In this document: positions 3,000 through 40,076 of the stretch, one piece after another
How positions within the stretch are numbered: position 1 is the stretch's first letter
Layout of the letters: each line of letters begins with the position of its first letter
IMG/VR virus record: IMGVR_UViG_3300034190_002865
Coordinates: 1 to 48,388 of that record
Reading direction: 5' to 3' (one strand)
Length of the DNA stretch: 48,388 nucleotides
From: a virus
Translations under genes and position numbers: made by a program
The notes under the pieces: generated by a model
Databases searched by the model: none
Seen by the model: the letters and a program-made list of their open reading frames with translations, nothing else
Told to the model about the DNA's origin: nothing

Positions 3000-4756
3000 G
3001 TGGCAAGGTAGCAGAATTAGAGAATATTCTAACTAGAGAACAGTTAGCTACAGCTATTACGGAGTTATATTCAGACTCACGTAATCAAAATGCTCCTTGG
3101 AGAGCAGAGACACAAGAATTAAGAGACTTTTTATTCGCTACAGACACAAGGAAGACTAGTAACGCTAAACTTCCTTGGAAAAATTCAACAACTCTTCCAA
3201 AATTAACTCAGATTAGAGATAACTTACATGCAAACTACATGTCAGCGCTATTCCCTAATGATGATTGGTTGAGATGGGAAGGATATTCTCCAGAAGATGA
3301 TCATGGAGATAAAAAAGAAGCTATTCAAGCGTACATGGGCAACAAGATACGTGAAAGCAAGTTTATAACTGTTATGTCACGACTTGTATACGACTATATC
3401 GATTATGGTAATGCTTTTGCAGACGTAGAATATGTTAAAGAAATGCGCGTAGACCCTGTTACAGGGGATGATATCCCTGGGTATATTGGGCCGAGGCTAG
3501 TACGGATTTCCCCCCTAGATATTGCCATTAACCCGGCAGCTGTATCTTTTGAGGGTACCTACAAGATGACACGTTGCGTAAAGACTTTCGGTGAGCTAAA
3601 GGCAGACGCCCAAGACCATCCAGAGAAGCAGTATTACCTGGATGCATTAGCTAAAGCTGAGAAAGTAAGATCTGCAGCTATCAATGGACACTATAGCGCT
3701 GAAGATTTTGAAAAAGCCAGCGGCTTCTCAATAGATGGGTTCGGTAGCTTGCAGGCTTATTTTCAATCCCCTTATGTGGAACTCCTAGAGCTAGAAGGGG
3801 ACATACACGATCCAGAGACTGGAGAGCTACTACGTAATCATGTAATCACAGTCCTTGATCGCTCGCATGTAATCCGTAAAGAGATTATCCCTTCTTGGCT
3901 AGGAAAAGGCAGCAAGGCACATGTTGGGTGGAGACTACGTCCAGATAATTTATATGCTATGGGTCCTCTACATAACCTAGTAGGCATGCAGTATCGGATA
4001 GATCATCTTGAGAATCTTAAGGCAGATGTGTTTGATCTTATCGCATTCCCTCCACTAAAGATCTACGGAGAAGTAGAACCATTTGACTGGCAGCCAGGCG
4101 CAGAGATACATCTAGACGCTGAAGGATCTGATGTTCAAATGTTAGTGCCAGACACTACAGCTCTTAATGCAGATATGCAGATAGATATTTTAGAGAGACG
4201 TATGGAAGAACTAGCTGGAGCTCCTAAGCAAGCTATGGGTATTCGTACTCCTGGGGAGAAGACAGCATTCGAAGTACAGTCATTAGAGAACGCAGCAGGT
4301 AGAATCTTCCAAGAGAAAGTGAATAACTTCGAGATTAATCTTCTTGAACCTATCTTAAACTCTATGTTGGAGGTGTCTAGAAGAAATATAGATGCTGCTG
4401 ATATTGTTAGAGTTCTCGATGATGATCTAGGCGTTTCTAAGTTTATCTCTATCACTAGAGAAGACATCACCGCTAAGGGCTCCCTAAGGCCCATAGGAGC
4501 TCGTCACTTCGCTGCTAGAGCACAGCTGGTACAAAACCTTACGGGTATCTTCTCAAGTCCTGTAGGGCAAATGATAAGCCCTCACGTATCATCGAAGGCT
4601 ATGGCCCAATTAGTAGAAGATGTTCTAGGGCTCAAGAGATTTGATCTTGTGAGAGATAATGTAGCTATTATGGAGCAAGCAGAGACTCAAAGACTGGCCT
4701 TACAAGCCCAAGAAGATGTTGAAGTAGAGCAGCAAATGCCGGTAGAAGGTATATAA
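2996..4756 (+). CDS. Portal (head-tail connector) protein
   Basis: A 586-residue protein following the terminase, with the length, composition and position of T7-type portals that form the dodecameric channel at the capsid vertex. The ATG at 2996 overlaps the terminase TGA as ATGA, with CGGAG about 10 bases upstream; an in-frame GTG at 2975 is less likely. The central part has the helical segment NLVGMQYRIDHLENLKAD and the loop GAPKQAMGIRTPGEKTAFEV, typical of the portal stem and crown of podoviruses. The C-terminal tail is glutamine- and glutamate-rich and may contact packaged DNA or core proteins. Identity rests on pattern, size and synteny. Confidence 0.9.
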   Translation: MSGKVAELENILTREQLATAITELYSDSRNQNAPWRAETQELRDFLFATDTRKTSNAKLPWKNSTTLPKLTQIRDNLHANYMSALFPNDDWLRWEGYSPEDDHGDKKEAIQAYMGNKIRESKFITVMSRLVYDYIDYGNAFADVEYVKEMRVDPVTGDDIPGYIGPRLVRISPLDIAINPAAVSFEGTYKMTRCVKTFGELKADAQDHPEKQYYLDALAKAEKVRSAAINGHYSAEDFEKASGFSIDGFGSLQAYFQSPYVELLELEGDIHDPETGELLRNHVITVLDRSHVIRKEIIPSWLGKGSKAHVGWRLRPDNLYAMGPLHNLVGMQYRIDHLENLKADVFDLIAFPPLKIYGEVEPFDWQPGAEIHLDAEGSDVQMLVPDTTALNADMQIDILERRMEELAGAPKQAMGIRTPGEKTAFEVQSLENAAGRIFQEKVNNFEINLLEPILNSMLEVSRRNIDAADIVRVLDDDLGVSKFISITREDITAKGSLRPIGARHFAARAQLVQNLTGIFSSPVGQMISPHVSSKAMAQLVEDVLGLKRFDLVRDNVAIMEQAETQRLALQAQEDVEVEQQMPVEGI

Positions 4757-6768: not shown

Positions 6769-7260
6769 ATGAGCTTTGAAAATAGCGCCGGTCTTGGCGT
6801 AAACAATTCTTACGGCATTCGTGGAACACAAGATGGAATCGTAGGCGGCGGTAAGCTTCCTGTATCAGGTTCTATTGACGAAATGGTTGTATATATCACA
6901 GCTGCTGACTTTGGCGCTGATGAGACTTTCGACACACGCTTCACATTGCCTGCAGGCTCAGTACCTTTAGACGCTTTGTTTGAAGTTACTGAAGCTTTCA
7001 CACAAACTGGTGGTACTACTAGCTTAACGCTAAACGTAGGTACTAACGGTTCTGAAGCTACTAACGGTTTTACAATTACAGATGCTGCTACTAGCATTGC
7101 AGTTGTAACTGAACTGGATGCTGTTGGTGACGGTACTTGGGCTAACTTAGCTCTAGCTGCTGACACTGCAGTAGGCGTTTCACTTGTTGCTGGTGGTGGT
7201 ACTATCACTTCAGTAGACGGTGGTGCGGCTAAAGTTGTTATCCGGTACCGTAAGGTCTAG
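6769..7260 (+). CDS. Capsid decoration or minor head protein (probable)
   Basis: A 163-residue, beta-rich, Thr/Gly/Ala-rich protein directly after the capsid gene and followed at once by a strong terminator. It shares the capsid gene's optimised codon choice (CGT, GGT, GCT), which points to high-copy production. There are no cysteines, signal peptide or membrane segment. The repeated GTNGSEATNGFT and VDGGAAKVVIRYRKV strands suggest a jelly-roll or immunoglobulin-like fold. A decoration or head-fibre role is inferred from position, expression signals and composition. Confidence 0.72.
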   Translation: MSFENSAGLGVNNSYGIRGTQDGIVGGGKLPVSGSIDEMVVYITAADFGADETFDTRFTLPAGSVPLDALFEVTEAFTQTGGTTSLTLNVGTNGSEATNGFTITDAATSIAVVTELDAVGDGTWANLALAADTAVGVSLVAGGGTITSVDGGAAKVVIRYRKV

Positions 7261-7625: not shown

Positions 7626-8120
7626 ATGCTAGTATCAAGCATAACAAAACAGGCAGATGATATTTTAAAAATGTTGTCTGATTCCGATAAGCTTTCTAAA
7701 GTTGTGAAACAATTAAAGAAGGCTGAGGATGGAGCTCTACAGGCTCGTCAGGAGCTGTGTAAGGCAAAGGACATAGGTAAAGCTAAAGAAGCCGCTAAAA
7801 AGGCTCAGATCGAAGCTGAGGAGCTTCTAGAGACATCTAAGAAAGAGGCTAAAGATATTGTCTTGCAAGCTACACAAGCTGCGAAGATAAGCCTTGAAGA
7901 AGCTAAGGCCTCATTATCTGATGTAAAAAAGAGATACTCTGAAGTAGAAAAATTAGAATCAATCCTCTCGAAGAGACTTAAAGAACTAGAGAAGAAAGAA
8001 ACTAGTGTTATTAAGAAAGAGGAGCAGGTTAAAGAAAAATTAGCTGAAGCTTCTGACATTAAGGCTGATTATCAGAAACAAATTGAAGAGCTGAAATCAC
8101 GTTTAACCGGGATCGTATAA
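7626..8120 (+). CDS. Coiled-coil protein, Lys/Glu-rich
   Basis: A 164-residue protein made almost entirely of charged heptad-like helix (KKAQIEAEELLETSKKEAK; KRLKELEKKETSVIKKEEQ). AAGGTAAGGAA precedes the ATG. No membrane span, so despite looking like ATP-synthase stalk proteins it is probably soluble. Between a head-protein gene and the large fibre it may be a rod-like structural element or an assembly chaperone for the fibre. Function not recognised. Confidence 0.78.
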   Translation: MLVSSITKQADDILKMLSDSDKLSKVVKQLKKAEDGALQARQELCKAKDIGKAKEAAKKAQIEAEELLETSKKEAKDIVLQATQAAKISLEEAKASLSDVKKRYSEVEKLESILSKRLKELEKKETSVIKKEEQVKEKLAEASDIKADYQKQIEELKSRLTGIV

Positions 8121-32935: not shown

Positions 32936-33181
32936 TCAGATTAATAGTCTCTCACAATACTCAACACCTTCGTAGAGGTACGCATAAGTATTGTCCAAAG
33001 CCACTTGAGGAGACATCTCTGCTTCATCAGGAGGCCCTGTAGAGTTAGTTACACCTTTTTCTTTAGAGACTGAGGTGTTGATACTTCCAGTGAGCGGTGT
33101 GCAGCTGACTAAGAAAACAATAGCTGCTATGAACACTAAAGCATATAAAGTCTGTGGATTGATCATACTTAAAACACTCAT
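32936..33181 (-). CDS. Lipoprotein (outer-spanin-like candidate)
   Basis: An 81-residue protein with AGGA 7 bases before its ATG. Residues about 8-26 are a signal sequence ending in a lipobox-like FLVSC, so cleavage before Cys27 and lipidation are likely. The rest (TPLTGSINTSVSKEKGVTNS ... YAYLYEGVEYCERLLI) is short and polar. It could be the outer-membrane spanin subunit for lysis, or a superinfection-exclusion lipoprotein. No inner-membrane spanin partner is obvious next to it, although the 116-residue membrane protein at 36318-36668 is a candidate. Confidence 0.75.
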   Translation of the reverse strand: MSVLSMINPQTLYALVFIAAIVFLVSCTPLTGSINTSVSKEKGVTNSTGPPDEAEMSPQVALDNTYAYLYEGVEYCERLLI

Positions 33182-33228
33182 TGTATAATCCTGTTAATTG
33201 GTTGAGAGTACATCCCCAACCACCACAA

Positions 33229-33301
33229 GAATTATACTTACAGATCGGACTCAACCGATAGGCTCTCCCGTAAACGTACGGCACCTGGCTAAGTATAATT
33301 C
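33229..33301 (-). ncRNA. 73-nt structured element closed by a 12-bp stem
   Basis: GAATTATACTTA (33229-33240) and TAAGTATAATTC (33290-33301) are perfect 12-bp inverted repeats. Between them the minus strand folds into two hairpins: CCGTA/TACGG with loop CGTT, and ATCGG/CCGAT with the T-arm-like loop TTGAGT. The total length of 73 is tRNA-like, but no anticodon arm or D arm is seen. It starts the gene-free stretch on the leftward transcript. Confidence 0.6.
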
Positions 33302-33477
33302 AGTTAGGGGCTGGGAACAGTTTATTTCTTTACAGCAGCCGTAAATGGACAGCACTGTGAGGGTATTAATCTTGGCCGCCTCTAGCCCTACCTCTATTTG
33401 TCGTTAGTTGCAACGAGGAACGAGAACCTGTCTGTCAGCAGTGGTTACTATAATCTGCTATTTTATATGTTTCATTA

Positions 33478-33547
33478 GGCCATTTCAGGAATCAAACCTG
33501 ATACTCTAGGGTCAAAGCCTAGCGTCTTAGTATTAGACTAGATGGCA
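33478..33547 (-). tRNA. tRNA-Gln(UUG)-like gene, degenerate
   Basis: A 70-nt cloverleaf on the minus strand: acceptor TGCCATC/AATGGCC (five central pairs, end pairs mismatched), U8-A9, D arm GTCT-AATACTA-AGAC, anticodon arm CTAGG-CTTTGAC-CCTAG (U33, anticodon TTG), four-base variable loop, T arm TCAGG-TTTGATT-CCTGA. Unusual points: the D loop lacks the GG pair, the T loop lacks C56, and no CCA is encoded. It may be a diverged functional tRNA, a decaying one, or a tRNA mimic. Confidence 0.6.
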
Positions 33548-33628
33548 GTACGTGACAGGGCTCGTGGACATTAAGACCTACAGGATTATCACGCTGTGTA
33601 GGTTACATTATACCTACTACATTTATTG

Positions 33629-33697
33629 AGCTGGAGTTATCTACAACCACCAGTGCCTCTCATCATTTAGAGGTCGCCTAGTAAGCGATAGCCAGCT
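33629..33697 (-). ncRNA. Second tRNA-like cloverleaf, strongly degenerate
   Basis: Minus-strand fold with acceptor AGCTGG/CCAGCT (six pairs), U8-A9, D arm TCGC-TTACTAG-GCGA, anticodon-like arm CCTCT/AGAGG with an 8-base loop AAATGATG (if U33 is the T, anticodon GAU), then a short irregular T region (GGTT/AACT) without the TTC loop. The D loop shares TACTA with the Gln-like element and also lacks GG. Too irregular to call a tRNA with confidence. Confidence 0.4.
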
Positions 33698-33832
33698 TTA
33701 AGGTGTTACTGATAAGAACCTGGTACCACCAGGGATTCCACGCAGCTGTATGCCTAGTCACGAGAAAATAGGACTCCTTTCAACATACTCTAGCAATAGC
33801 GGGGCAGGGAATCGAACCCTCTTTATATCTTA

Positions 33833-34309
33833 TTAGGGGTGTTTCTGATTCATTATTTCAGATTCAATCAACTCTCCTAGAGAAGGTTCTTCACATGCGT
33901 CTACGTCATTGGTGTGAACGTCTTTATAAGATACACGAGTTACTTCATCTCTAAGAACTTTATCAACAGTAGACAGCTGTTGTTCTTCATCTGTAACGGA
34001 CTGACTCTCTGTTACAGGGCTTGGGGCTATGTCGTCAGAGGAGGATACCTCCGAATCCTCGGGAAACCCCGTCCCGCACTGTCGATCATTGGTCGATGAT
34101 CCGTTCTCCTTGACAGTTACAGTGGGACGGGGTTTTATTTTAGCAGCCAATTGCTCACCGTAGTTATGCACCAGTGAGGCTAAATACTCAATTCCGTGGA
34201 AGACTCCCGAAGAGGAATATACAGCAAAATACCCGAGATATCTAACACCTCTCTTCAAATACTTAATAAAGAAATCATTGTCGATAGCAGGCCAGTTATT
34301 AGTGTTCAT
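33833..34309 (-). CDS. Hypothetical protein with acidic C-terminal tail
   Basis: A 158-residue protein (MNTNNWPAIDNDFFIKYLKR ...). The start at 34309 is preferred to the longer frame because it follows the upstream gene end closely; AAGG is 11 bases upstream. Residues 1-65 are aromatic and helical and could be membrane-peripheral. Residues about 70-158 are low-complexity, Ser/Glu/Asp-rich and probably disordered. A strong GC-rich inverted repeat (34064-34135) lies inside the coding region. Unknown function. Confidence 0.7.
   Translation of the reverse strand: MNTNNWPAIDNDFFIKYLKRGVRYLGYFAVYSSSGVFHGIEYLASLVHNYGEQLAAKIKPRPTVTVKENGSSTNDRQCGTGFPEDSEVSSSDDIAPSPVTESQSVTDEEQQLSTVDKVLRDEVTRVSYKDVHTNDVDACEEPSLGELIESEIMNQKHP
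34064..34135. repeat. GC-rich inverted repeat within a coding region
   Basis: AAACCCCGTCCC (34064-34075) pairs perfectly with GGGACGGGGTTT (34124-34135). The stem continues with CACTG/CAGTG after a one-base bulge, and the loop contains a smaller GATCAT/ATGATC hairpin. On the plus strand it is followed by TATTTT, as in a terminator. On the minus strand the sequence after it is GGGGTTTCCC, less terminator-like. Confidence 0.88.
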
Positions 34310-34625
34310 TAATTCTATTACCTTTTTTAGAGTTTCGTGGGTGTATTCCACACAAGCGCTTGACAACAGCCTCTTTCTCGTTCCAGTGCTTAGGCTCTTT
34401 CATCTCATACCTGATAGATGCCAAAGCATTCCTAGATTCCCGGAGGCGTTGCAGTTCTATCTTATCTATCATTACGTTGTCACCTACATCGTTAATGTGA
34501 GCAAGATACTTCTTCTCGGAAGAGATAAGATTATCATAGTTCTTTATATCTATGACTTTTAGATTCAAATTGATCGGGTCTAAGAAACCTAAGACCTTAA
34601 GAAACGCGTTTAAGAGTTTTGTCAT
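34299..34625 (-). CDS. Hypothetical protein
   Basis: A 108-residue, charged protein (MTKLLNAFLKVLGFLDPINL ...) with an amphipathic N-terminus and a helical QRLRESRNALASIRYEMKEP segment. AGG precedes the ATG by 7 bases. It overlaps both neighbouring genes slightly. No family recognised. Confidence 0.72.
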   Translation of the reverse strand: MTKLLNAFLKVLGFLDPINLNLKVIDIKNYDNLISSEKKYLAHINDVGDNVMIDKIELQRLRESRNALASIRYEMKEPKHWNEKEAVVKRLCGIHPRNSKKGNRINEH

Positions 34626-35209: not shown

Positions 35210-35845
35210 CTACGCAACCTTCTTAGAAGACAAGAGGTCGTTGACTGCTTTATCAAACACCTTCTGTTCTTTCTTAGTTCGGGTAAAAGAGGTGTGGCCG
35301 TTACTACATCCAGGGCATTCAGTTGTCATAAGAGGGACGCCCTCATACGAGCAGTTATACCAAGCATTGTCGTCCTCATGATTTGCTATAGGGCTTATAC
35401 CCCTTTCCTCGCAGAGGCGCTCCCAGGAGCCCATATCTTCTCTCATCACGGATTGGACCAATGTATGGAAGCTTATAGAACTCCTAGTAAGGTTAATCAC
35501 AGGGCACTTTGACCTTATCTTATCAAAGTCTTTGTCGGAGACATTGTACACATTAAAATTGGCGCTGGAGCATTGCCTAGTCTCTATAATCTCCGTTAAT
35601 TTATCACGGATTCTAATAAAGGCCTCTTTTTTAGAGGGGTACGTAGGAGTAAATTCTCCGCCAAACCTCAGATTTTTAGGGGTACTGATCTGACCAGAGA
35701 AATACTTAGAAAACACTTTAATCTGCTTTCTAATATTTTTCTGGTCTAGCCTATCCATATCGTGATCGTCTATGTATGCCGAGACTGCTATCATGTTACA
35801 TGATTGGATCTTTTTTAATGGCGTTTTTTCTAGAAATGAGAACAT
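35210..35845 (-). CDS. Hypothetical protein with CxxC
   Basis: A 211-residue soluble protein (MFSFLEKTPLKKIQSCNMIA ...) ending with TTECPGCSNGHTSFTRTKKE, a half zinc-knuckle, and containing six further Cys. Its first 16 bases overlap the end of the endolysin gene. No recognised domain. The location between endolysin and holin candidates may mean a lysis-associated role, but nothing in the sequence proves it. Confidence 0.75.
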   Translation of the reverse strand: MFSFLEKTPLKKIQSCNMIAVSAYIDDHDMDRLDQKNIRKQIKVFSKYFSGQISTPKNLRFGGEFTPTYPSKKEAFIRIRDKLTEIIETRQCSSANFNVYNVSDKDFDKIRSKCPVINLTRSSISFHTLVQSVMREDMGSWERLCEERGISPIANHEDDNAWYNCSYEGVPLMTTECPGCSNGHTSFTRTKKEQKVFDKAVNDLLSSKKVA

Positions 35846-37600: not shown

Positions 37601-39193
37601 CTAGCCAGTTTTCAAGTGGCCTTGCTTGTTTTCGCTTTCATTAAGTAGTGGTATTACTTCAGCTCCTGAGATAATCATTTGCCCTAGTTCTTGGTCGTAA
37701 GTTTCAGGCACTTCTATCAGCATATTAGGAAGCTTCTTCCAAGCCTTCTTCAATGCCAGATGATAAACCTCATCTTGAGAATGTCCAGATACGTGTTGCG
37801 AATTCATAATGGTCTTATAAAGTTCGCCGCTATCTTGGTTAGACTCTTTGGGTTGCACGGACTTGCTCACCGTAGTAACTGTGTCGGCTACTATTTCTTG
37901 TGGTGCAGGACCGCAGACCTCCTGCATCATCGCTGGTGATGGTAATAACAAGGGCGATTTTCTACAAGATACTGGCAGATCTGATGGTTTCAGAGATGTA
38001 GCCTTCTTGGCCCTACGTTTAAAGTCGTCGAAATTCTGTTTAGGAGGCCATGTAAGGGCAGCAAATGCCCGTAAAGACTCCTCATCTATTTCATTGTTAC
38101 GGTAGGCAGCATACATGCAGATGTAGCGGTTCCACTGCATATCTCCTAGAATGGTAGTCCTCTTAAAGTACCTCTCTCTAGGGGCGAAGAACCCTGCCTT
38201 AGTTCCTTCATATCTTGAACCGATAAGTAAACCTTCACTAGTATTCCATGCAGGCATGTAATCTACATGAGCGTTAAACTTATCCATTGAGTACAGCCAT
38301 CCAAGATAGTTGGCTTTTTCCCAGTAATCTGTAGACTCTTGAGTTTCTTCAGGAATGAGCTTTTCTATGGCTGTCATCCTGTTGTACTTAAACTCATATG
38401 CATGATGATTATACATAGTCTCCTGGTACCGCATATACTCAGAACTACCTTCATGTGTATAACAGTAGGTATAATGCTTAGGAGCTAGTTCACGTTGCTC
38501 CCGATAGAATCGCGTCAACTCAGCTACAGTTTCTTGGTCTTTAACTGCCAAGAGGCGACGCTCTTCCTCTTCATCACGGGAGTAATTACTCTTAAGCTGT
38601 TTAACAATCAATTGCTTGACACTGGGAGGTCGTAGTCCCTTCCAGTCTATTCGCGCTAACAGATCTCGGGTGTCTTTTCTAGGTCGGTAGTTTACGCAGA
38701 GGTCACTCTCCCCTGTCTGTAACCTACCTGAAGCCTTTCTTGACGCCGAGGAGGATGCCATTCGTTCCACCCTTAGGGATCTCTCACTTTCAGTCTCTGA
38801 CAAGTAACATACTCTGTACTTTTCAGGGATTCCAGAGAAAGACTTAAGCCATATCTTTAGTCGATAGTTATGGTTCTGAGCTAAGTCTATTTTTCCTGGT
38901 TGTTTTCCCACATCCAGGGTAAAGGGAGGGTCTTCCTCTTCAATCTCTTCCGATATAGCCCCCTTATAGCTGCCCATAGGGGTAACTCTTATATCCCCTA
39001 CTAATTGTTTCTTAACTTCCTCGGAGAGAGTCTCTAGCATAAATCCTACAGATCGTAGGCCTGTCTCGGGCACATATTCAGGAACCGGGCTTGGCTTGGC
39101 CTCCCCGGCCTTCTTGAATCTTCCAAGAAAGATGATATTATCTTGCTGAGACTTATCTGTCTTAACATCTTGGTCTTTTGTTTTCACAGGCAT
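37601..39193 (-). CDS. Large unknown protein, 530 residues
   Basis: The ATG at 39193 is chosen because ACGGAG lies 5 bases upstream, whereas the ATG at 39214 has no ribosome-binding site. The protein is soluble and charged with no signal or membrane segment. A central part (about 200-390) is rich in Tyr, Trp and His (HYTYCYTHEGSSEYMRYQET; NHHAYEFKYNRMTAIEKL; DYWEKANYLGWLYSMDKF) and looks folded. The ends are low-complexity. I do not recognise a family. It is the largest leftward gene outside replication and follows an 850-base structured leader. Confidence 0.82.
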   Translation of the reverse strand: MPVKTKDQDVKTDKSQQDNIIFLGRFKKAGEAKPSPVPEYVPETGLRSVGFMLETLSEEVKKQLVGDIRVTPMGSYKGAISEEIEEEDPPFTLDVGKQPGKIDLAQNHNYRLKIWLKSFSGIPEKYRVCYLSETESERSLRVERMASSSASRKASGRLQTGESDLCVNYRPRKDTRDLLARIDWKGLRPPSVKQLIVKQLKSNYSRDEEEERRLLAVKDQETVAELTRFYREQRELAPKHYTYCYTHEGSSEYMRYQETMYNHHAYEFKYNRMTAIEKLIPEETQESTDYWEKANYLGWLYSMDKFNAHVDYMPAWNTSEGLLIGSRYEGTKAGFFAPRERYFKRTTILGDMQWNRYICMYAAYRNNEIDEESLRAFAALTWPPKQNFDDFKRRAKKATSLKPSDLPVSCRKSPLLLPSPAMMQEVCGPAPQEIVADTVTTVSKSVQPKESNQDSGELYKTIMNSQHVSGHSQDEVYHLALKKAWKKLPNMLIEVPETYDQELGQMIISGAEVIPLLNESENKQGHLKTG

Positions 39194-39396
39194 GTATTCT
39201 CCGTTGATACTCATAATGGTTGGTTAATGTATTCAGTTACAAACTTAATTCTACCTTAGTCTACATAGTTTCAAGCATGATTCCTAACAGGAGAAGAATG
39301 GTGTCCAACCCTGTACCGGGCGACTAACGCGCTGAATACTCGAAATTTTCTTTACTTATCTTACTTTTTCCCATCTATACACCCTTAAAACACACG

Positions 39397-39413
39397 GTAG
39401 GATTTAAACCTAC
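39397..39413 (-). ncRNA. T-arm-like hairpin
   Basis: Minus strand GTAGG-TTTAAAT-CCTAC: 5-bp stem and 7-base loop as in a tRNA T arm. I could not build an acceptor, D arm or anticodon arm around it, so it is recorded as a hairpin only. Confidence 0.4.
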
Positions 39414-39476
39414 TGCCACAGTTCATTTGTACACCGGTTATCAGGGGCATCTTCTTACCGAGAGTGGCCACCCTGG

Positions 39477-39495
39477 AGCAGGGATCGAACCTGCT
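39477..39495 (-). ncRNA. T-arm-like hairpin with canonical TTCGATC loop
   Basis: Minus strand AGCAGG-TTCGATC-CCTGCT: 6-bp stem with a textbook T loop. The upstream 50 bases lack a U33-containing anticodon loop (the nearest stem encloses AGGAAACAAA) and lack a matching 5' acceptor, so a complete tRNA is not supported. Confidence 0.45.
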
Positions 39496-40028
39496 ATCGA
39501 CTGTTTGTTTCCTCAGTTGATGTTATCGTGATCAGTTAAAGGTGATGTGGTCGTACAGCGACTAAGATGTAATCGCTACTCAGTTAGCGTGATCCATTAA
39601 TACCTGTTTTTGGATAGGATGCGTAGAAGAAACTTAGGTATAATCGGCTTTTGAGGCTCAAACGGCTCACTGATAAGCCACCTTCTCTATTACACTCTAA
39701 GAGAGTTTTACACTTCCCTATACTATCCCACTTGAAGTTAGCCCGAAACCCTTACAGGGCAATACAGGACGTCTCAAGGGGTATCTAGATCAGAGGGACT
39801 GAGATTTTAATAGTTAAACCATCAGGATACTCTCTTATCTGGAAAGTCCTAATGTACAGCTGTATTTTTGTAGGGGTTGGACGGTCTCCGTGTATTGGTG
39901 TTTCACGCTCACCGTAGTAACCTGGCAGACTTTCTCAGCTCGATGAATGATGATGGCCTTGAAAATCTTTTATACTCTTCCCGCTAGTTTCCTCATGTAT
40001 GAAAGGAAGGTCACGCAAGAGTCTATCA

Positions 40029-40076
40029 GTACGATAGCTAATAAGCCCAGGTTAGTAGGCTTATCGGTTATCGTAC
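40029..40076. repeat. Long hairpin at the 3' end of a membrane-protein gene
   Basis: GTACGATA (40029-40036) pairs with TATCGTAC (40069-40076), and ATAAGCC (40041-40047) with GGCTTAT (40058-40064); 17 of 19 stem positions pair on the minus strand, with a 10-base loop. It spans the stop codon of the gene ending at 40068. No T-run follows, so RNase III processing or mRNA protection is more likely than termination. Confidence 0.85.

What the first reader, a model, noticed from the sequence alone, without database searches (positions are those of the whole stretch)
33229..33832. Array of tRNA-like and hairpin RNA elements between two leftward genes
Within 600 bases without a protein gene there is a 73-nt element closed by a perfect 12-bp stem, a 70-nt Gln(UUG)-like cloverleaf, a second cloverleaf of 69 nt, a 5-bp CCTGG/CCAGG hairpin and a free T-arm. 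Both cloverleafs have U8-A9, a 7-base D loop containing TACTA and no GG, and no encoded CCA. Shared departures from the standard tRNA form suggest a related set rather than chance decay. They could be diverged tRNAs, decoys for tRNA-cutting defence enzymes, or RNase P/Z processing signals in the transcript.
Basis: partly seen in the sequence, partly recalled or inferred. Interest (0 to 1): 0.72.

Follow-up and report, generated by a model that had tools for sequence, protein, structure and literature searches.

The report
tRNA-derived noncoding RNA in a phage
A gene-free stretch of a phage genome holds one tRNA-like RNA, a leftover tRNA arm and a long hairpin; in related phages the same kind of gap carries RNAs that imitate a tRNA with its pieces in swapped order, a design known from bacterial Y RNAs but here found without the usual partner protein.

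Summary
Partly confirmed. The window is a 48.4-kb Zobellviridae-like phage record. On the minus strand its 643-nt noncoding stretch 33190-33832 holds a real but aberrant tRNA-Gln(UUG) (44 bits), a lone T-arm, and a perfect 12-bp stem (8 of 3000 shuffles) inside a ~25-bp hairpin just before the next gene. The 'second cloverleaf' is near background and prefers another fold.

Relatives give the context. Several carry similar T-arm-rich gaps in the early genes, with almost no ordinary tRNAs. In GX1 (PQ867844) and some IMG/VR phages these contain tRNA-like modules in circularly permuted order (T-arm, capped acceptor stem, D-arm, closed by an 'anticodon' stem). The best scores 47.0 bits with a permuted-tRNA model; one covaries across three phages (6 pairs changed on both sides; covariation score reached by 0/500 shuffles). 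This is the architecture of the bacterial Y RNA YrlA: two modules match RF02553 below its cut-off, and no Ro60/TROVE gene was found. The window keeps only what looks like a decayed copy.

Most likely: tRNA-derived structured RNA of the early transcript, cut free at the hairpin, presenting a tRNA elbow to a host tRNA-binding protein. Function is inferred. New variant of a known kind.

The parts
33190..33832 (-). Noncoding region A: about 643 nt between the 177-aa gene (33833-34366) and the 81-aa lipoprotein-like gene (32936-33181), all transcribed leftwards
   Evidence: ORF list; whole-region fold z -1.85, 0 of 20 shuffles as stable; gaps of similar size upstream of primase in GX1 (L004 5598-6360), L006 (5535-6110), L016/L113 and L111
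33806..33820 (-). Free T-arm (AGGG TTCGATT CCCT) just after the stop codon of the upstream gene, followed by CCCCGC-TATT-GCTAGAG; read as a decayed copy of the permuted module of L006
   Evidence: the 28 nt after it align with the same position in L006 better than all but 72 of 20,000 shuffles; acceptor and D-arm pairing are lost
33719..33733 (-). Small hairpin CCTGGTGGTACCAGG followed by TTCTT (weak terminator-like)
   Evidence: close to the chance number of such sites
33629..33697 (-).
   Evidence: 1.1% of region shuffles hold one of the same grade; MFE not a cloverleaf, z -2.3; no Rfam tRNA hit up to E 10
33477..33547 (-). tRNA-Gln(UUG)-like RNA, conventional order, no G18G19, U73, acceptor 5/7, no encoded CCA
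   Evidence: (44 bits), fold
33212..33318 (-). Terminal hairpin, about 25 bp of helix (10 bp, 1x1, 3 bp, 3x3, 12 bp) ending about 31 nt before the lipoprotein-like start codon; contains the 73-nt element 33229-33301
   Evidence: same place and similar helix plan in GX1, L111, L113; long hairpin also in L002
39215..40067 (-). Noncoding region B, about 850 nt, with two T-arms (39478-39494 and 39397-39413); some relatives also have a T-arm-bearing gap further upstream of primase
   Evidence: weak fold signal overall, z -0.94

Best explanation
Region A is a tRNA-derived structured noncoding RNA carried in the leftward transcript, upstream of the primase gene, of a Zobellviridae-like phage. In relatives it carries one or more tRNA-elbow modules in circularly permuted order (T-arm, short capped acceptor hairpin, D-arm, all closed by the 'anticodon' stem that joins the rest of the RNA), the architecture of the tRNA-mimic module of bacterial Y RNA YrlA; in GX1, L111 and L113 it ends in a long hairpin with a tRNA-Pro-like, CCA-bearing tip. 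The window has a conventional-order tRNA-Gln-like RNA, what looks like a decayed permuted module (the lone T-arm) and the terminal hairpin. Shown by sequence: the elements, and the permuted fold with its covariation in relatives. Inferred: RNase III (and RNase P where an acceptor and CCA remain) cuts the RNA free at the terminal hairpin, and the elbow is offered to a host tRNA-binding factor (PNPase, TruB or DusA by analogy with YrlA, RNase P, or a tRNA-targeting defence nuclease). The elbow and closing stem are kept while the acceptor shrinks from 7 bp to 4, 2 or none, which argues against a role in decoding.
For: tRNA-Gln 44 bits. T-arm-rich gaps in relatives, T-arms there nearly all on the strand of the flanking genes, while ARAGORN finds almost no tRNA in these loci. 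The GX1 module L004 5857-5923 scores 47.0 bits, E 1.7e-10, with a model of tRNAs permuted in silico from phages outside the group, mostly T5; 0 of 1000 shuffles of its flanks reach its descriptor score; its MFE is the permuted fold. GX1, L111 and L113 module P1: 91.7% of cells paired, 6 pairs changed on both sides (shuffled mean 2.7, 1/500), covariation score 0.529 against 0.245 (0/500), slid versions at most 0.10. YrlA matches 39.3 and 31.8 bits, against 14.0 for T5 with its tandem tRNAs. Terminal hairpin z -3.1 in the window and -6.1, -4.8, -4.9 in GX1, L111, L113, -6.1 in L002; double changes TA to CG and GC to AT in its acceptor between GX1 and L111. Window T-arm flank resembles the L006 module, 72/20,000 shuffles.
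Against: The window itself holds no recognisable permuted module: only T-arm matches and no YrlA match. YrlA scores are far below Rfam's cut-off of 69, and no TROVE/Ro60 gene was found in the window or ten relatives. Tandem tRNAs can score up to 31.4 bits with the permuted model, and the YrlA model rings below cut-off in 13 of 14 control genomes, so weaker hits rest on covariation or flank tests, not on score. Module MFE folds of L104 and GX1 P1 are not the permuted shape. Nucleotide similarity between the gaps is slight, so orthology of the regions rests on position and architecture; no comparable terminal hairpin was seen in L006. Covariation rests on three sequences. Expression and processing are untested.
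Confidence: 0.55

Rival explanations
1. Decaying tRNA array: the phages once carried ordinary tRNAs; tandem duplication and deletion left halves, T-arms and one nearly intact tRNA-Gln, without present function.
For: The window's lone T-arm, loss of G18G19 and C56 and two open acceptor pairs in tRNA-Gln, and the near-background second cloverleaf look like decay; tandem copies followed by loss of the outer halves is a simple origin of permuted order (inference).
Against: In relatives the permuted module is kept by compensatory changes and GX1 module P2 is nearly perfect; decay alone would not do this. The D, anticodon and T stems of the window's tRNA-Gln are intact.
Confidence: 0.25
2. Decoy or sink for tRNA-targeting host factors (anticodon nucleases, or RNase P, TruB, DusA): the phage makes tRNA-shaped RNAs that cannot be used in translation.
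For: The elbow is kept while acceptor and anticodon parts vary. Phage tRNAs that evade tRNA-cutting defences are documented (PMC10264068, PMC11555353; [quoted passage not shown]
Against: The permuted modules have no anticodon loop, so they would not bait an enzyme that reads the anticodon; no interaction was tested.
Confidence: 0.25
3. Processing signal only: the hairpin and tRNA-likes are RNase III and RNase P/Z sites that split the transcript and set the 5' end of the lipoprotein-like mRNA.
For: A long helix ends roughly 31 to 38 nt before the next start codon in the window, GX1, L111, L113 and L002; in GX1, L111 and L113 an acceptor with A73-CCA sits within it.
Against: Does not explain several hundred nt of noncoding RNA with multiple modules, nor the capped acceptor of the permuted modules.
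Confidence: 0.2
4. A functional codon-supply tRNA-Gln surrounded by meaningless sequence.
For: 44-bit tRNA with an intact UUG anticodon loop.
Against: U73 instead of the G73 known for glutamine tRNAs, no G18G19, mismatched ends of the acceptor; ARAGORN found no tRNA-Gln in the relatives' loci.
Confidence: 0.12

Closest known systems
Bacterial Y RNA YrlA (Rfam RF02553), tRNA-mimic module
   Same: Order T-arm, capped acceptor stem, D-arm, closed by a basal stem; tRNA-like T- and D-loops; L113 39.3 bits and GX1 31.8 bits
   Different: Below Rfam's cut-off of 69; conserved Ro-binding basal stem not recognised; no TROVE/Ro60 gene found; embedded in a gap of several hundred nt instead of a 90-150 nt RNA; acceptor hairpin varies from 7 bp to none; the window itself has no match
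T5 tRNA-like stable RNAs (rna1, rna2, rna3; annotated in AY543070); T4 stable RNAs C and D (from memory)
   Same: Phage-encoded tRNA-like RNAs of unknown function in a tRNA-rich region
   Different: T5 has about 20 ordinary tRNAs beside them; here ordinary tRNAs are almost absent
GOLLD and ROOL ornate large RNAs (PMC12286853)
   Same: Large phage noncoding RNAs often near tRNAs
   Different: No Rfam match to either in the window or in the ten relative loci scanned
MALAT1/mascRNA-type tRNA-like at the 3' end of a long noncoding RNA
   Same: A tRNA-like with a potential RNase P site at the 3' end of the RNA (GX1, L111, L113)
   Different: Analogy only; the one mascRNA match, in L111, is 17.5 bits, E 1.1

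Membership tests
tRNA (RF00005), element 33477-33547 | Cloverleaf scoring above the Rfam cut-off | tested here: met
   44 bits, cut-off 29; ARAGORN tRNA-Gln(ttg)
tRNA (RF00005), element 33477-33547 | G18G19 in the D-loop, C56 in the T-loop, complete acceptor stem | tested here: not met
   D-loop AAUACUA, U56, two acceptor mismatches (sequence; alignment)
tRNA (RF00005), element 33477-33547 | Processed, CCA-ended and aminoacylated | not testable with these tools
   No expression data
tRNA (RF00005), second cloverleaf 33629-33697 | Covariance score above background | tested here: not met
   Not listed up to E 10; 1.1% of region shuffles give the same grade
YrlA (RF02553), modules of relatives | tRNA-mimic module: T-arm, capped acceptor, D-arm in permuted order | tested here: met
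YrlA (RF02553), modules of relatives | Score above the family's cut-off (69 bits), which includes the basal Ro-binding stem | tested here: not met
   39.3 and 31.8 bits at best
YrlA (RF02553), window | Any match to the family | tested here: not met
   No match at E up to 10 in the window record
Ro60/Y RNP system | TROVE/Ro60 protein encoded with the Y RNA | tested here: not met
   PF05731 absent from the window and ten relatives; several records are fragments; a host Rsr is not excluded
GOLLD / ROOL | Match to the Rfam models | tested here: not met
   None
tmRNA | tRNA-like domain plus tag reading frame | tested here: not met
   ARAGORN finds no tmRNA; 18.8 bits against a cut-off of 47 for the L113 3' tRNA-like

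The most novel reading that the evidence does not exclude
A clade of Zobellviridae phages has adopted the YrlA-type permuted tRNA elbow as a recurring module of large noncoding RNAs, without Ro60, capping or deleting the acceptor stem so that the RNA presents only the tRNA elbow to a host tRNA-binding enzyme during infection; the window carries a variant in which the permuted module has decayed and a conventional tRNA-Gln-like RNA is present.
Probability: 0.3. Interest if true: 0.72.

Novelty: new variant of a known kind. Interest (0 to 1): 0.45.

Why it matters
Permuted tRNA mimicry is known from YrlA Y RNAs, which tether a Ro60 relative to PNPase. Covarying modules of that design in a group of phages with no detectable Ro60 suggest that the elbow mimic works on its own or with a host partner, and give a phage system for asking which enzyme it binds. 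It also explains why tRNA finders report almost nothing in phage noncoding regions that are full of T-arms.

Tried and rejected
Nucleotide search of the region in GenBank phages: no match. The 177-aa neighbour found no relatives. GOLLD/ROOL, tmRNA or other Rfam families: no credible match in the window beyond tRNA. Anticodon-loop intron reading with ARAGORN intron modes: only low-threshold, inconsistent calls. Permuted module in the window: not found; the window's descriptor hits (14.2 and 15.65) lie far from region A and at a level that shuffles reach. DNA patterns CGACCAACCRAGTGTCCTGC and TACCANNRTMTAAAATATGATT gave no new relatives: the contigs of L111, L016 and L131 again (L149, L150, L152) plus apparently coding chance matches L148, L151, L153. 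Three Zobellviridae Vibrio phages (MG592660, MG592578, OX241572): no permuted module; the weak model hits coincide with annotated tRNAs. Ro60/TROVE gene: absent. The GTGCC...GGGAGA hairpin shared by window and L002 is 16 of 23 identical, which by my own estimate is not significant without the positional constraint. A prophage attachment-site reading of the free T-arm was not pursued: only a weak PHROG integrase match (E 0.0056) was seen, in 35210-35845.

Full report
What the window is. The window is a whole IMG/VR virus record of 48,388 bases. Terminase, portal, major head, tail, internal virion, DNA polymerase and primase/helicase genes are recognised, and the best GenBank relative by primase is phage GX1-k141_326647, PQ867844, family Zobellviridae, 56% identical. 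The finding lies in a gap without protein genes, 33190-33832, between genes that are transcribed leftwards, about 1.7 kb upstream of the primase gene.

Checking the elements. A tRNA-Gln(UUG) at 33477-33547 on the minus strand is found by ARAGORN and by the Rfam tRNA model at 44 bits. D, anticodon and T stems are perfect, but the acceptor has five of seven pairs, the D-loop AAUACUA lacks G18G19, the T-loop has U at position 56, and position 73 is U where glutamine tRNAs normally have G (established knowledge). The 73-nt element 33229-33301 has the 12-bp stem described; 8 of 3000 shuffled regions have one as long. It is the top of a longer hairpin of about 25 bp, z -3.1. The free T-arm at 33806-33820 is real. 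The second cloverleaf at 33629-33697 is not convincing: it is not listed for the Rfam tRNA model up to E 10, shuffled regions give one of the same grade in 1.1% of cases, and the strand prefers an irregular hairpin.

Relatives. Primase-based scans of IMG/VR gave closer relatives (L002/L098, L005/L006/L100, L016/L113, L111, L010/L102, L012/L104, L105, L106/L112, and the more distant L130 and L131). Several hold long noncoding gaps upstream of primase. These loci hold many T-arms, with few exceptions on the strand of the primase and its flanking genes, yet ARAGORN reports almost no tRNAs there. Nucleotide similarity between the gaps is slight.

Permuted modules. Reading the GX1 gap by eye showed a T-arm followed by an acceptor 3' strand, a four-base loop, an acceptor 5' strand, U8-A9 and a D-arm, with the anticodon stem closing the whole. 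I tested this in four ways. First, a descriptor search: the GX1 module (20.8) and the L006/L100 module (19.4) score above the best value in 187 Mb of shuffled clade sequence (18.7); with the T-arm held fixed and flanks shuffled, none of 1000 reach the GX1 score, 5 of 1000 the L006/L100 and the L111 scores, 11 of 1000 the L104 score and 18 of 1000 the L102 score. Five of 36 T-arms examined thus fall at 0.02 or below. Second, a covariance model built from 15 tRNAs of phages outside the group, mostly T5, cut and rejoined in permuted order, scores the GX1 module at 47.0 bits, E 1.7e-10, and modules of L130 31.6, L100 29.5 and 28.7, L113 25.2 and L111 23.3. As a control, tandem tRNAs of T5 reach 31.4 bits by joining neighbours, so only the GX1 score stands clearly on its own. 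Third, the module P1 shared by GX1, L111 and L113 shows covariation: 6 pairs changed on both sides against 2.7 in shuffles (1 of 500 as high), score 0.529 against 0.245 (0 of 500), and slid controls at most 0.10. Only three sequences are available, and relatedness can inflate the shuffle comparison; the slid controls keep relatedness. Fourth, the single-sequence MFE folds of the GX1 module P2, of L111 P1 and of the L100 module show the permuted shape, and that of L113 does so with a short acceptor; those of L104 and GX1 P1 do not.

Known counterpart. Rfam's YrlA model (bacterial Y RNA, RF02553) matches the L113 module at 39.3 bits, E 4.6e-7, and the GX1 module at 31.8 bits, while T5 reaches 14.0. 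YrlA is described as having a basal stem and a tRNA-like domain resembling D, T and acceptor arms; it is modified by DusA and TruB, and its tRNA-like domain binds PNPase while the basal stem binds the Ro60 relative Rsr (PMC8394870). YrlA has been reported in phages (PMC7765460 citing Sim and Wolin 2018), and some jumbo phages carry a TROVE protein (PMC7824862). The modules here fall below the family cut-off of 69 bits, the basal stem is not recognised, and no TROVE gene was found. They therefore work like, or at least look like, the YrlA tRNA-mimic module but are not filed as YrlA.

The 3' end. In GX1, L111 and L113 the gap ends in a hairpin of about 25 bp with a tRNA-like tip whose acceptor, A73 and CCA resemble tRNA-Pro (established knowledge of tRNA-Pro ends; L111 scores 30.0 bits with the tRNA model) and whose anticodon loop is replaced by a larger structured insert. 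Between GX1 and L111 the acceptor has two double changes and the outer helix one. Folding z-scores are -6.1, -4.8 and -4.9. The window (z -3.1) and L002 (z -6.1) have a comparable long hairpin in the same place, with a different tip; the hairpins end roughly 31 to 38 nt before the next start codon. No such hairpin was seen in L006. I read this hairpin as a processing point (RNase III, and RNase P where the acceptor is present); that is inference.

The window's place in the family. The 28 bases after its free T-arm (CCCCGCTATTGCTAGAG...) align with the same position of the L006 module (CCCCGCTAATGCTGGG...), a score reached by 72 of 20,000 shuffles. The window has lost the pairing, so the free T-arm is best read as a decayed permuted module. 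The window thus has one conventional tRNA-like RNA, one remnant and the terminal hairpin; its own copy could not be tested for covariation because no relative close enough was found.

Mechanism. Shown: the elements, and in relatives the permuted fold and covariation, among genes transcribed towards the primase. Inferred: the RNA is released by processing at the terminal hairpin, folds into a tRNA-derived structure and offers a tRNA elbow to a host factor. The acceptor stem ranges from 7 bp (GX1 P2) to 6 (L006, L104), 4 (GX1 and L111 P1), 2 (L113) and none (L130) while T-arm, D-arm and closing stem remain, which argues that the elbow, not charging or decoding, is what matters. Rivals are a decaying tRNA array, a decoy for tRNA-targeting factors and a pure processing signal; they are not mutually exclusive.

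Verdict. For the window alone the finding is modest, a noncanonical phage tRNA with remnants, for which T5 gives precedent. The wider set, YrlA-like permuted modules in phages without detectable Ro60, is a new variant of a known kind.

Noticed in passing
window 39215-40067 (-): A second noncoding stretch of about 850 nt with two T-arms (39478-39494, 39397-39413), upstream of a 537-aa gene (37601-39214) with no Pfam or PHROG match.
   Followed up: partly
L002 1578-1738: A 160-nt nearly perfect long hairpin between small genes upstream of primase; the stretch 1480-1760 folds with z -8.7.
   Followed up: no
L111 about 7830-7880, L113 about 7650-7700, L131 about 6935-6990: Shared motif: hairpin CTGGT...ACCAG (GTGGT...ACCAC in L131) followed by TATAAAATATGATT-like sequence and a strand that can pair with the hairpin loop, a possible conserved pseudoknot in phages with quite different primases.
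   Followed up: partly
L010 64-140 and L012 458-531: A 77-nt stretch 74% identical between two phages in noncoding region B, with TCTAGTGGATACTAAAAAGT in common.
   Followed up: no
L113 1502-1576: A tRNA with an 8-nt anticodon loop (ARAGORN anticodon aacg); the Rfam tRNA model gives 39.3 bits at what appears to be the same place in its record.
   Followed up: no
L105 3719-3789 and about 3982: An ordinary-looking tRNA-Trp; a nearby T-arm at 3982 follows a D-arm-like hairpin directly, without an anticodon arm.
   Followed up: no
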